Source: Streptomyces sp. NBC_00289 (GTDB lineage: Bacteria > Actinomycetota > Actinomycetes > Streptomycetales > Streptomycetaceae). Taken from it: DNA of 64,000 nt. The notes under the pieces were generated by a model, which saw only the letters and a program-made list of their open reading frames with translations, ran no database searches and was not told where the DNA came from. The stretch lies in assembly GCF_041435115.1 (NCBI RefSeq), contig NZ_CP108046.1:10106001-10170000 (forward strand), written 5' to 3'. Within the stretch, counting starts at the first letter, position 1, and every line of letters begins with the position of its first letter. Below, in pieces: positions 34,050 through 40,283 of this stretch. The position numbers were made by a program, and so were the translations under genes.

Positions 34050-35792
<1,743 letters not shown>

Positions 35793-36323: not shown

Positions 36324-37715
36324 CTGTCCGGCCGGAAGGCCCGACTGCTGATGGGATGGCGTGCCCGCCGGGGCTGTGGCGGCGTGAGCACTGGATCCAT
36401 TAGGGCGCGAGCTGTGTCTTCCGCTGGCCACGTGCACGTGGTACGTCGAGAGGTTGGAGAAGCGGGTGCTGTTCGTCGGCGACGACTGGGCCGAAGACCA
36501 CCATGATGTCGAGGTCCAGGACGGTTCGGGCCGCAGGCTCGGGACCGCCCGGCTGATGGAGGGTGTCGAAGGGATCGCCAAGCTGCACGCCCTGGTCGCC
36601 CGGTACGGTGGCCAGGACCTGGAGCCGGGGCAGGTAGTGGTCGGGATCGAGACCGACCGCGGGCCGTGGGTGCAGGCCCTGCTCGCGGTTGGCTACCAGG
36701 TCTATGCGGTCAACCCGCGGCAGGCGGCCCGGTTCAAGGAACGCTACGGCACCTCCGGCGCGAAGAGCGAAAAGGGCGACGCGCACGCGCTCGCGGACAT
36801 GGCCCGCATCGACCGCGATCAGTTACGGCCGATCGCCGGGGACAGCGAGCAGGCCCAGGCCGTCAAGGTCGTTGCCCGCGCCCATCAGACCCTGATCTGG
36901 GAACGCACCCGCACCTTCCAGCGCCTGCGGAACACGCTGCGCGAGTACCCGGCGCGCTCACTGCCTACGCCAGCTTGGAGCTGACCAGCACCGACGCCCT
37001 GGAACTGCTGGTCAAGGCCCCCACACCCGAGCGGGCGTCGAAGCTGACGAAACAGCAGATCACCGCGGTGCTGGCCCGGCACCGCCGCCGCAACCGCGAC
37101 CAGAGGGCCGCGACGATCGCGGCCGCGCTGCGCGAGCCCCAGCTCGACGTCGCGGCCCCGGTGACCGCCGCCTACGCAGCCGCGGCGACCGCGCACGCCC
37201 GGCTGCTGATTGCCCTCAACGAGCAGATAGACACGTTGGAGGGTGAAGTGAAGGCACATTTTCGGGCACACCCGGACGCTGAGATCTACCTGTCGATGCC
37301 CGGCATCAGCGAGATCGTCCGGGCCCGGGTGCTCGCCGAGTTCGGGGACGACCCCGCCCGCTACGCGTCCGCGAAGGCACGCAAGAACTACGCCGGCACC
37401 AGCCCGGTCACCCGCGCTTCCGGCAGGAGCCACACCGTCCAGGCCCGCTTCGTCCGCAACAACCGCCTCGCCGACGCGCTGCAGCGCCAGGCGTTCTGCG
37501 CGCTGCAGAACTCACCCGGAGTCCGCCGCTACTACGACAAGCAGCGAGCCCGCGAACTCGACTACAACCCCGCCCTGCGTCAGGTCGGCAACCGCCTCGT
37601 CGGCATCCTCCACGGATGCCTCAAGACCCGCACCCGCTACGACGAGGCCACCGCCTGGGCCCACCACGCCAACCTCGCCACGAGTTGACACCCAACGCCA
37701 TGGGATGTCTGACAA
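36324..37715 (+). mobile_element. IS110-family element, copy 1 (1392 bp)
   Basis: Compared with copies 2 and 3, identity runs from CTGTCCGGCCGGAAGG (36324) to GGATGTCTGACAA (37715). As expected for IS110, there are no clear terminal inverted repeats or target duplications. About 130 bp of non-coding DNA precede the gene. Copies 2 and 3 share a further 106 bp on this side, so copy 1 may be truncated at the left. Confidence 0.85.
36454..37688 (+). CDS. IS110-family (DEDD) transposase in two frames
   Basis: The first frame (36454-36984) has the RuvC-like DEDD domain: LFVGDDWAEDHHDVEV, VVGIETDRGPW and YGTSGAKSEKGDAHALADMA. The second frame (from about 36955) has the Transposase_20 domain with IYLSMPGISEIVRARVLAEF and the catalytic Ser region NYAGTSPVTRASG. 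The break after RNTLREYP is present at the same place in all three copies. Either one dead copy was amplified or the frames are joined by frameshifting. Start ATG or GTG near 36454 follows GAGAGG. Confidence 0.85.
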
Positions 37716-37768
37716 CACCTCCCGGGGCCCCTGAGGATGTCCGTCAAAGCGGATCAAACCCAAGACCT

Positions 37769-38704
37769 CTACCCACGCGACGGCTCAGGCACCAACGTCT
37801 TCTCCGGCTCACCACGCGACGGCTCAGGCACCAACGTCTTCTCCGGCTCACCACGCGACGGCTCAGGCACCAACGTCTTCTCCGGCTCACCACGCGACGG
37901 CTCAGGCACCAACGTCTTCTCCGGCTCACCACGCGACGGCTCAGGCACCAACGTCTTCTCCGGCTCACCACGCGACGGCTCAGGCACCAACGTCTTCTCC
38001 GGCTCACCACGCGACGGCTCAGGCACCAACGTCTTCTCCGGCTCACCACGCGACGGCTCAGGCACCAACGTCTTCTCCGGCTCACCACGCGACGGCTCAG
38101 GCACCAACGTCTTAGCGGGTGAACTTCGAGGGTTTCGGCCGATTCGAATCACGTTCAGAACGGTTCCGGTGATGGTGACCCGTGAGGCTGGCAGAGAAAG
38201 TGGCGGAGCTGAAATGCGAGTAGCATTCCGGTTCACCACGCCAGTCTGAGTACCATCCGGCAGGAATATCCAGCCCGCATCAATATCATGGCCTTCGGTT
38301 ACTGATACTGCTTTATACATGGCGACAGATCGACCAGTTTTGAGGTCAAAGGCTGTGGAACTACCGTGTCGCTCAAGGATCCCGGACGCGTGGTCGTTCC
38401 TCGCCTTTCCTGAGAGGCGCGCTCCATCCGGTCCATTCAGTTCAAATGCGCCATCTCCGGAAGCGGCCCCACTGAACCAATCTCCCACTTCATGGCCATC
38501 GCACAAATAACCATAAGCTTTTTCGCCGAAAACAGAAATTGCCAAAGCTGCTCCGCCTCCTATGTGACTGGAGTAGTCTATCGCACGTATTCTCCTGTCC
38601 TGCGATTGCACTGCACAAAGTGCAGCAATGATGCAAGTAATCATTAAAGCGACCAGTCCGACGACAGTCGGAGGACACGAAAATCTGCCAACTTTCAGTT
38701 TCAT
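37769..38704 (-). CDS. Membrane-anchored or secreted protein with 13-residue tandem repeats
   Basis: I start at ATG 38704, preceded by GAAGGGG at good spacing, giving 311 residues; the frame is open to 38812. Residues about 14-34 are hydrophobic (VVGLVALMITCIIAALCAV), a signal peptide or anchor. A globular domain (about 40-170) follows, with AYGYLCDGHEVGDWFSGAAS, LNGPDGARLSGKARNDHASG and SVAMYKAVSV. The C-terminus is nine copies of KTLVPEPSRG joined by GEPE, ending in a stop right after the last copy. The YLCDG-W-G-DGA pattern recalls, from memory, a domain of actinobacterial secreted proteins without assigned function. The core gene is lower in GC than its surroundings. It lies between inverted IS110 copies. 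Confidence 0.75.
   Translation of the reverse strand: MKLKVGRFSCPPTVVGLVALMITCIIAALCAVQSQDRRIRAIDYSSHIGGGAALAISVFGEKAYGYLCDGHEVGDWFSGAASGDGAFELNGPDGARLSGKARNDHASGILERHGSSTAFDLKTGRSVAMYKAVSVTEGHDIDAGWIFLPDGTQTGVVNRNATRISAPPLSLPASRVTITGTVLNVIRIGRNPRSSPAKTLVPEPSRGEPEKTLVPEPSRGEPEKTLVPEPSRGEPEKTLVPEPSRGEPEKTLVPEPSRGEPEKTLVPEPSRGEPEKTLVPEPSRGEPEKTLVPEPSRGEPEKTLVPEPSRG
37773..38113. repeat. 39-bp coding minisatellite, eight full units plus a partial
   Basis: The unit starts CCACGCGACGGCTCAGGCAC. Eight units from 37773 to 38084 and a ninth of 29 bp to 38113 appear base-perfect. Each encodes 13 residues of the tandem-repeat protein on the minus strand, and the array stays open in several frames because 39 is a multiple of three. 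There are no spacers, so it is not CRISPR. Confidence 0.97.
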
Positions 38705-38891
38705 AAATACCCCTTCGCGCAGAATACGGCATCCTGATTGTTGCATCGATATCACAAGAGTGGCGAGTGTGGATCCGAGGCAAGGAAGACGGTTCCATAT
38801 ACGTATCTTCAACCCGAGCTATCCAGGTATACGATACTCACTTCCAATGGCTCGCAAAAGATCAAGCTGCTACTGAGTCTTTGCCAGGGCA

Positions 38892-40283
38892 TTGTCAGAC
38901 ATCCCATGGCGTTGGGTGTCAACTCGTGGCGAGGTTGGCGTGGTGGGCCCAGGCGGTGGCCTCGTCGTAGCGGGTGCGGGTCTTGAGGCATCCGTGGAGG
39001 ATGCCGACGAGGCGGTTGCCGACCTGACGCAGGGCGGGGTTGTAGTCGAGTTCGCGGGCTCGCTGCTTGTCGTAGTAGCGGCGGACTCCGGGTGAGTTCT
39101 GCAGCGCGCAGAACGCCTGGCGCTGCAGCGCGTCGGCGAGGCGGTTGTTGCGGACGAAGCGGGCCTGGACGGTGTGGCTCCTGCCGGAAGCGCGGGTGAC
39201 CGGGCTGGTGCCGGCGTAGTTCTTGCGTGCCTTCGCGGACGCGTAGCGGGCGGGGTCGTCCCCGAACTCGGCGAGCACCCGGGCCCGGACGATCTCGCTG
39301 ATGCCGGGCATCGACAGGTAGATCTCAGCGTCCGGGTGTGCCCGAAAATGTGCCTTCACTTCACCCTCCAACGTGTCTATCTGCTCGTTGAGGGCAATCA
39401 GCAGCCGGGCGTGCGCGGTCGCCGCGGCTGCGTAGGCGGCGGTCACCGGGGCCGCGACGTCGAGCTGGGGCTCGCGCAGCGCGGCCGCGATCGTCGCGGC
39501 CCTCTGGTCGCGGTTGCGGCGGCGGTGCCGGGCCAGCACCGCGGTGATCTGCTGTTTCGTCAGCTTCGACGCCCGCTCGGGTGTGGGGGCCTTGACCAGC
39601 AGTTCCAGGGCGTCGGTGCTGGTCAGCTCCAAGCTGGCGTAGGCAGTGAGCGCGCCGGGTACTCGCGCAGCGTGTTCCGCAGGCGCTGGAAGGTGCGGGT
39701 GCGTTCCCAGATCAGGGTCTGATGGGCGCGGGCAACGACCTTGACGGCCTGGGCCTGCTCGCTGTCCCCGGCGATCGGCCGTAACTGATCGCGGTCGATG
39801 CGGGCCATGTCCGCGAGCGCGTGCGCGTCGCCCTTTTCGCTCTTCGCGCCGGAGGTGCCGTAGCGTTCCTTGAACCGGGCCGCCTGCCGCGGGTTGACCG
39901 CATAGACCTGGTAGCCAACCGCGAGCAGGGCCTGCACCCACGGCCCGCGGTCGGTCTCGATCCCGACCACTACCTGCCCCGGCTCCAGGTCCTGGCCACC
40001 GTACCGGGCGACCAGGGCGTGCAGCTTGGCGATCCCTTCGACACCCTCCATCAGCCGGGCGGTCCCGAGCCTGCGGCCCGAACCGTCCTGGACCTCGACA
40101 TCATGGTGGTCTTCGGCCCAGTCGTCGCCGACGAACAGCACCCGCTTCTCCAACCTCTCGACGTACCACGTGCACGTGGCCAGCGGAAGACACAGCTCGC
40201 GCCCTAATGGATCCAGTGCTCACGCCGCCACAGCCCCGGCGGGCACGCCATCCCATCAGCAGTCGGGCCTTCCGGCCGGACAG
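38892..40283 (-). mobile_element. IS110-family element, copy 2 (1392 bp)
   Basis: Inverted relative to copies 1 and 3 and the same length as copy 1. The 106 bp beyond its left end (40284-40389) are repeated inverted at 41179-41284 next to copy 3. Confidence 0.88.
38919..40153 (-). CDS. IS110-family transposase in two frames, copy 2
   Basis: Protein sequences of both frames (39623-40153 and the part of 38919-39941 downstream of the shift) are identical to copy 1, including the break after RNTLREYP. See copy 1 for motifs. Confidence 0.85.

What the first reader, a model, noticed from the sequence alone, without database searches (positions are those of the whole stretch)
37716..38891. Protein with perfect 39-bp coding minisatellite, trapped between inverted IS110 copies
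A membrane-anchored or secreted protein ends in nine 13-residue repeats (KTLVPEPSRG plus GEPE). The eight full DNA units look identical, so the array is very young or kept uniform by recombination. The stop codon follows directly after the last repeat. A Pro/Glu/Lys repeat stalk after a globular domain suggests a wall-spanning or surface-display tail whose length can vary. The array begins about 55 bp from one IS110 end, and the gene is lower in GC than its surroundings. This is the most novel-looking non-mobile gene in the window.
Basis: partly seen in the sequence, partly recalled or inferred. Interest (0 to 1): 0.78.

Follow-up and report, generated by a model that had tools for sequence, protein, structure and literature searches.

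The report
Orphan barrel protein with repeat tail
A membrane-anchored barrel protein that normally sits beside two partner genes, one for an electron-transfer protein, has here become a lone gene near the end of a Streptomyces chromosome and grown a long, perfectly repeated disordered tail; a sister gene nearby grew a different tail with the same core motif, and that one differs by one repeat between the two chromosome ends.

Summary
The 39-bp coding minisatellite is real: eight identical units plus 30 bp, ending the ORF 37769-38701 (minus strand). The window lies in a ~682-kb terminal inverted repeat (TIR) of a 10.6-Mb chromosome, and the other arm has the same array. The globular part is an anchored beta-barrel. 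None of 110 loci read from other genomes has a repeat tail (one, L198, was not readable to its end), and most stand in a conserved operon, barrel - DUF6529 - Rieske. The window gene lacks those partners and the usual N-terminal Pro/Ser/Thr linker, and has a C-terminal repeat tail instead. A second orphan paralogue in the same TIR, 111 kb away and without IS110 nearby, shows the same change with a different 57-bp unit. Both units encode KTxxPxPSRG, mostly with different synonymous codons, so the tails look older than their present copies. Among 66 differences between the TIR arms, the only one above 5 bp is exactly one 57-bp unit. Best reading: a disordered tail whose units are turned over by slippage or recombination, much like the in-frame repeats of archaeal Borgs. 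IS110 is a bystander. A "stalk" is unlikely because nothing lies beyond the tail. What the tail does is inferred, not shown.

The parts
37769..38701 (-). ORF of 310 aa (ATG at 38701 behind a GAAGGGG ribosome-binding-like stretch, read by eye): TM helix 11-32, beta domain about 40-187, repeat tail 197-310
38114..38701 (-). anchor plus globular domain (196 aa); homologous to a family matched in 82 of 392 sampled Streptomyces genomes, own genome included
37772..38113 (-). perfect 39-bp minisatellite, eight full units plus 30 bp, coding KTLVPEPSRGEPE repeats; predicted without secondary structure
37735..37763 (-). end of an insertion element that looks IS3-like (label by eye); ~28-bp matches in this genome and in 23 of 198 other Streptomyces genomes; begins just past the stop codon
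36324..37715 (+). IS110-family element copy 1 (Pfam DEDD_Tnp_IS110 and Transposase_20 in two different frames)
38892..40283 (-). IS110-family element copy 2, identical to copy 1 and inverted
38702..38891 (-). upstream region between the start codon and IS110 copy 2; promoter not looked for

Best explanation
The gene is an orphaned, fast-evolving paralogue of a membrane-anchored beta-barrel protein whose ordinary form sits in an operon with DUF6529 (a membrane protein) and a Rieske 2Fe-2S protein. In the TIR of this strain two such orphans exist. Both lack the Pro/Ser/Thr linker between anchor and barrel and carry instead a C-terminal disordered tail made of in-frame tandem units with a KTxxPxPSRG core. 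The units are copied, lost and homogenised by replication slippage or unequal/inter-arm recombination in multiples of three bases, so tail length can change in single-unit steps without breaking the protein. The tail most likely serves as a flexible, length-tunable extracytoplasmic extension that contacts or threads the cell wall, or offers repeated sites for a partner or for O-glycosylation. Shown: repeat, homology, absence of operon partners and linker, second tail, one-unit difference between the assembled arms. Inferred: mechanism of unit turnover, that the shared motif is under selection, and the tail's task.
For: Lack of tails elsewhere: 110 outside loci plus the own core copy read (103 distinct domains), median 4 and at most 27 residues after the domain (L198 is cut by an in-frame stop, so its end was not seen). 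Operon: DUF6529 match in 103 and Rieske match in 101 of 116 loci, neither at the 5 own TIR loci (names from Pfam); no DUF6529 match anywhere in the own arms and plasmids held. Sister gene: 57-bp units, 12 in the left arm and 11 in the right. 66 differences in ~682 kb between the arms, only that one longer than 5 bp. Shared motif 7 of 10 residues: 1 of 20,000 shuffles reaches it in the best 10-residue stretch, 5 of 20,000 over the whole unit; 5 of the 7 shared residues use different synonymous codons. The motif occurs nowhere else in the own sequence fetched. Domain folds confidently (mean pLDDT 87.5); tail has no secondary structure, block pLDDT about 45-65. Both TIR copies keep the residues invariant in the alignments.
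Against: No expression data. The window's own array has the same unit number in both arms. The tails have opposite net charge (-7 and +24), so a common charge-driven role is unlikely. Whether the two tailed proteins are each other's closest relatives is unresolved (49% of 200 bootstrap trees), so convergence is possible. Reads inside a TIR cannot be told apart by arm, so the one-unit difference could be an assembly effect. Tandem repeats as such, perfect ones included, are common in the core of this chromosome (26 rows in 280 kb with period at least 9, 3 or more copies, score at least 80), so the arrays stand out by length and score, not in kind.
Confidence: 0.55

Rival explanations
1. Neutral decay: the two orphans are under relaxed selection in an IS-filled TIR, and the tails are harmless slippage products that happen to stay in frame.
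For: Orphaned from the operon; long tree branches 1.55 and 2.17; surroundings full of transposase-like ORFs; no such tails in the outside loci read.
Against: Both reading frames are open with the family's invariant residues kept; both units are multiples of three; both tails sit at the same place and share a motif with different codons.
Confidence: 0.3
2. Wall-spanning or display stalk.
For: Pro-rich disordered repeats in a protein with a TM anchor.
Against: Nothing is carried beyond the tail; the barrel starts about 9 residues after the TM helix. In ordinary relatives the spacer lies between anchor and barrel.
Confidence: 0.06
3. Assembly artefact or IS110-driven rearrangement that made the array.
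For: The array is 56 bp from an IS110 end; the many 1-2 bp length differences between the arms suggest a noisy long-read assembly.
Against: Same array in both arms; a different array in a paralogue without IS110 in the 12 kb around it; the IS3-like element end, not IS110, is the direct neighbour of the array.
Confidence: 0.05
4. The array matters as DNA or RNA (recombination site, regulator, opposite-strand ORF 37737-38249), not as protein.
For: The opposite strand is also open across the array.
Against: Unit length keeps the domain's frame; the two units share 7 of 10 residues but only 19 of 30 bases; the opposite ORF starts inside the insertion-element end.
Confidence: 0.04

Closest known systems
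In-frame amino-acid tandem repeats (aaTRs) of archaeal Borg elements (PMC9879509; start of abstract, passages and section 2.2.2 read)
   Same: Perfect head-to-tail units divisible by three, unit number differing between close copies, disordered regions rich in Pro/Thr/Glu/Lys, often in extracellular or membrane proteins, host homologues without the disordered region, homologous proteins sharing repeat composition, linear replicon with long inverted ends.
   Different: Bacterial chromosome; two strong arrays in the 682-kb TIR rather than pervasive ones; both in one protein family; Borg units are A-enriched, these are GC-rich.
Barrel protein of the barrel - DUF6529 (PF20139) - Rieske operon of Actinomycetota (the barrel itself matched no Pfam or NCBIfam model above its cut-off)
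   Same: Anchor plus homologous barrel domain with Y-[LF]-C-D-G and other conserved residues.
   Different: No DUF6529 or Rieske neighbour, no N-terminal Pro/Ser/Thr linker, added C-terminal repeat tail, GC about 53% before the array instead of about 70%.
TbpB / fHbp / NHBA eight-stranded barrels (solved structures)
   Different: Sequence identity 9-18%; only part of the domain covered; no evidence of shared function.
Lysostaphin N-terminal repeat region (PF25533)
   Same: Weak profile match to the tail; tandem 13-residue repeats there are recalled, not from a call.
   Different: 25.2 bits against a cut-off of 60; the tail comes after the globular domain; composition match only.

Membership tests
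Barrel family of the barrel-DUF6529-Rieske operon | Homologous anchored barrel domain | tested here: met
   E 1e-26 and 42% identity to the NBC_00233 protein, 48% to SKN60, same tree group with support 100/99
Barrel family of the barrel-DUF6529-Rieske operon | Adjacent DUF6529 and Rieske genes | tested here: not met
   absent at all 5 own TIR loci; DUF6529 match at 103 of 116 loci
Barrel family of the barrel-DUF6529-Rieske operon | Pro/Ser/Thr-rich linker between anchor and barrel, protein ends soon after barrel | tested here: not met
   PST fraction 0.17-0.20 against a median 0.63 of 111; 8 of the 111 are also below 0.35
Borg-type aaTR protein | Perfect in-frame units divisible by three making a disordered region in an extracytoplasmic protein | tested here: met
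   (location inferred from the predicted TM helix)
Borg-type aaTR protein | Unit number differs between close copies | tested here: inconclusive
   sister array 12 versus 11 units between arms, window array equal in both; arms share reads
Borg-type aaTR protein | Encoded on a Borg element | tested here: not met
   window is in a 10.6-Mb Streptomyces-type chromosome
TbpB/fHbp/NHBA barrel superfamily | Common descent of the barrel | tested here: inconclusive
Lysostaphin_N (PF25533) | Score above Pfam's gathering cut-off | tested here: not met
   25.2 bits against 60
Passenger of an IS110 composite element | Gene moves with flanking IS110 copies | not testable with these tools
   no second location outside the TIR pair in this genome; gene not found in 198 other genus genomes by DNA

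The most novel reading that the evidence does not exclude
Two orphan barrel paralogues in a bacterial TIR carry fast-cycling, motif-conserving repeat tails, and the two chromosome ends hold different tail lengths of one of them at the same time. The linear chromosome would then act as a two-copy reservoir that generates and homogenises tail-length variants: a bacterial counterpart of the Borg tandem-repeat proteins.
Probability: 0.22. Interest if true: 0.7.

Novelty: new variant of a known kind. Interest (0 to 1): 0.5.

Why it matters
Two arms of one TIR are a built-in comparison: almost identical sequence, with a repeat-unit change standing out against few other differences. With two paralogues bearing different repeats around one shared motif, it allows a test of whether perfect repeats are young or merely kept uniform. 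It also brings to light a widespread actinobacterial operon (barrel - DUF6529 - Rieske) and shows one of its proteins occurring alone in a changed form. A search of the open-access library for the word DUF6529 found no paper.

Tried and rejected
Considered and rejected: IS110-made array (no IS110 match around the sister array); low GC as a special feature (45 such segments in 800 kb); phage origin (viral-contig scan with A3: 74 pattern stretches, none a relative); plasmid origin (tblastn against plasmids: only one Nonomuraea record of 11.85 Mb; DNA search none). My first thought that the two arrays are the only tandem repeats of note was weakened by a control: the core regions are richer in repeats than the TIR, some of them perfect; what remains is that the two arrays have the highest scores (1358 and 682; next 382) in the 1.97 Mb examined. 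The whole-protein search with the tail found only the window's own protein (7,994 candidates scored, a capped set). The search with the sister gene's domain found nothing at E 0.001 among 1,055 candidates, not even itself, so that protein is not in the database. No sequence match better than E 0.089 in solved structures. Foldseek proper could not be run, so the fold comparison rests on VIA-align's second look at Foldseek's ranking. Paper searches (listings seen only, apart from PMC9879509) gave nothing closer than the Borg paper. Not all profile matches were read to the C terminus: one search matched 81 other genomes and 29 were read, one search matched 50 and 29 were read (some genomes in both), so a rare tailed relative could have been missed.

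Full report
Observation. The array is as described: period 39, 8.7 copies, 100% matches, eight full units plus 30 bp at 37772-38113, in frame with an ORF on the minus strand whose likely start is the ATG at 38701 (310 aa), and closed by TAG. Fifty-six bases separate it from an IS110 copy; much of that is the end of another insertion element, recognised by ~28-bp matches at seven further places in this genome and in 23 of 198 other Streptomyces genomes (a 24th genome, G065, matched another part of the query). Beside one such end in this genome lie ORFs that read like an IS3-type OrfA/OrfB pair (L005; label by eye). The two IS110 copies are identical over 1392 bp and inverted; the copy that I scanned has its two transposase domains in different frames, so the identical second copy has the same.

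Where it is. The window is part of a 10,626,179-bp contig, and an identical copy of gene and array lies near the other end. I fetched 800 kb from each end. The ends are inverted copies over about 682 kb. A walk along both found 66 differences, nearly all of 1-2 bases, many in runs of one base, four of them single-base changes. Only one is longer than 5 bases.

The ordinary form. In 103 of 116 loci the barrel gene has a DUF6529 match close by, and in 101 a Rieske match (Pfam names for examples). Of the 13 without DUF6529, five are the own TIR loci (two genes, both arms, one fetched twice), two are at contig ends (L072, L197), and six are others (L052, L079, L108, L109, L110, L112). Ordinary members have an N-terminal Pro/Ser/Thr-rich linker (median fraction 0.63 of the 35 residues before the domain, n = 111, eight below 0.35) and stop a median of 4 residues after the domain, at most 27. 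All 111 ORFs end in a stop codon, not at a contig end, and hold 103 distinct domains; one, L198, is broken by an in-frame stop inside the domain. This genome has an ordinary core copy, too (L060).

The second tail. A further own paralogue lies in the same TIR, 111 kb further out (C1:370369-371655 and its mirror). It too lacks the operon partners, is low in GC (56% before the array), is short of the linker (fraction 0.20), and ends in a repeat tail, but of a different unit: 57 bp, KTAAPAPSRGGSTSTTSPP. It has 12 units in the left arm and 11 in the right. Two variant units near the end of the array, which differ by a synonymous base, keep their order in both arms, so the unit lost or gained is among those before them. 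Neither half of the IS110 transposase matches anything in the 12 kb around it. No other locus read has a repeat tail.

Old tails, young copies. Each array is almost perfectly uniform, yet the two units differ: 19 of 30 bases agree in the shared part, but 7 of 10 residues do (KTxxPxPSRG), five of them through different synonymous codons. In 20,000 shuffles the best 10-residue stretch reached seven matches once, and the whole-unit comparison five times. The motif is found nowhere else in the own sequence held (21 and 20 occurrences in the two arms, the numbers of units in the two arrays). The simplest reading is that the motif goes back to a common tail or is favoured by selection, while the copies within each array are refreshed. 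A tree puts the two tailed proteins in a well supported group of four with NBC_00233 and Streptomyces sp. SKN60 (100/99), but does not settle whether the tailed pair is one branch (49% of 200 bootstrap trees) and warns of long branches. So one origin with unit replacement and two origins with convergence both stand.

Control. Tandem repeats are common in this chromosome: 26 rows in 280 kb of core around 5.0-5.28 Mb and 17 in 180 kb around 3.0-3.18 Mb at period 9 or more, three or more copies and score 80 or more (some rows overlap), against 3 rows in one 682-kb TIR arm. Some core arrays are perfect as well. What sets the two TIR arrays apart is their length and score (1358 and 682; the next in 1.97 Mb is 382). 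Seventy TRF rows of score 50 or more are found in each arm; three differ in copy number, two of them by a tenth of a copy and one by a whole unit.

How it may work. The full-length model shows a TM helix, the barrel about nine residues behind it, and a tail without secondary structure. A stalk that lifts a domain would have to lie between anchor and domain, as the Pro/Ser/Thr linker does in ordinary members; here the spacer has in effect moved to the free end. I therefore favour a flexible extracytoplasmic extension that touches or threads the wall or offers repeated sites, its length changing by whole units. The opposite net charges of the two tails (-7 and +24) speak against a purely electrostatic role. 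Slippage or recombination between units and between arms is inferred from the pattern, not observed.

Comparison with what is known. The closest match in print that I found is the work on archaeal Borg elements (PMC9879509; start of abstract, passages, section 2.2.2). There, perfect units inside genes are divisible by three, can differ in number between related elements, mostly make disordered regions, are enriched in extracellular and membrane proteins, and often have similar composition in homologous proteins, while the host's homologues lack the disordered regions. Here the setting is a bacterial linear chromosome, and the two strong arrays of the TIR fall in one protein family. I call it a new variant of a known kind.

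Limits. Reads in a TIR cannot be assigned to an arm, so the one-unit difference needs anchored long reads. Part of the profile matches were not read to their C termini. Function rests on inference.

Noticed in passing
L063:1500-4407; L230:9109-10568; 103 of 116 loci: Conserved operon for which the paper search for DUF6529 found nothing: anchored barrel protein, DUF6529 membrane protein, Rieske protein; in Streptomyces sp. SKN60 also an anti-sigma-like gene upstream (below the families' cut-offs).
   Followed up: partly
C1:602010-604224 (left arm; L145): Low-GC stretch with an ECF-sigma-like ORF (by eye), an anti-sigma match and a Rieske match but no barrel or DUF6529, like a broken-up SKN60-type cluster.
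   Followed up: partly
C1:1-682394 and mirror: Very long TIR (about 682 kb) with many insertion elements, 99.99% identical between arms.
   Followed up: yes
36324-37715 and 38892-40283: Two identical inverted IS110 copies with a frame break between the DEDD and Transposase_20 parts; further partial copies near C1:474-479 kb and 166 kb of the left arm.
   Followed up: partly
34791-34833: Perfect (TCCGGC)7 run inside a DDE transposase ORF (34050-35792 minus), coding a Gly/Ala run.
   Followed up: no
left arm 1-800000: 45 separate stretches below 58% GC (600-bp windows), most not examined; could be a set of foreign genes.
   Followed up: no
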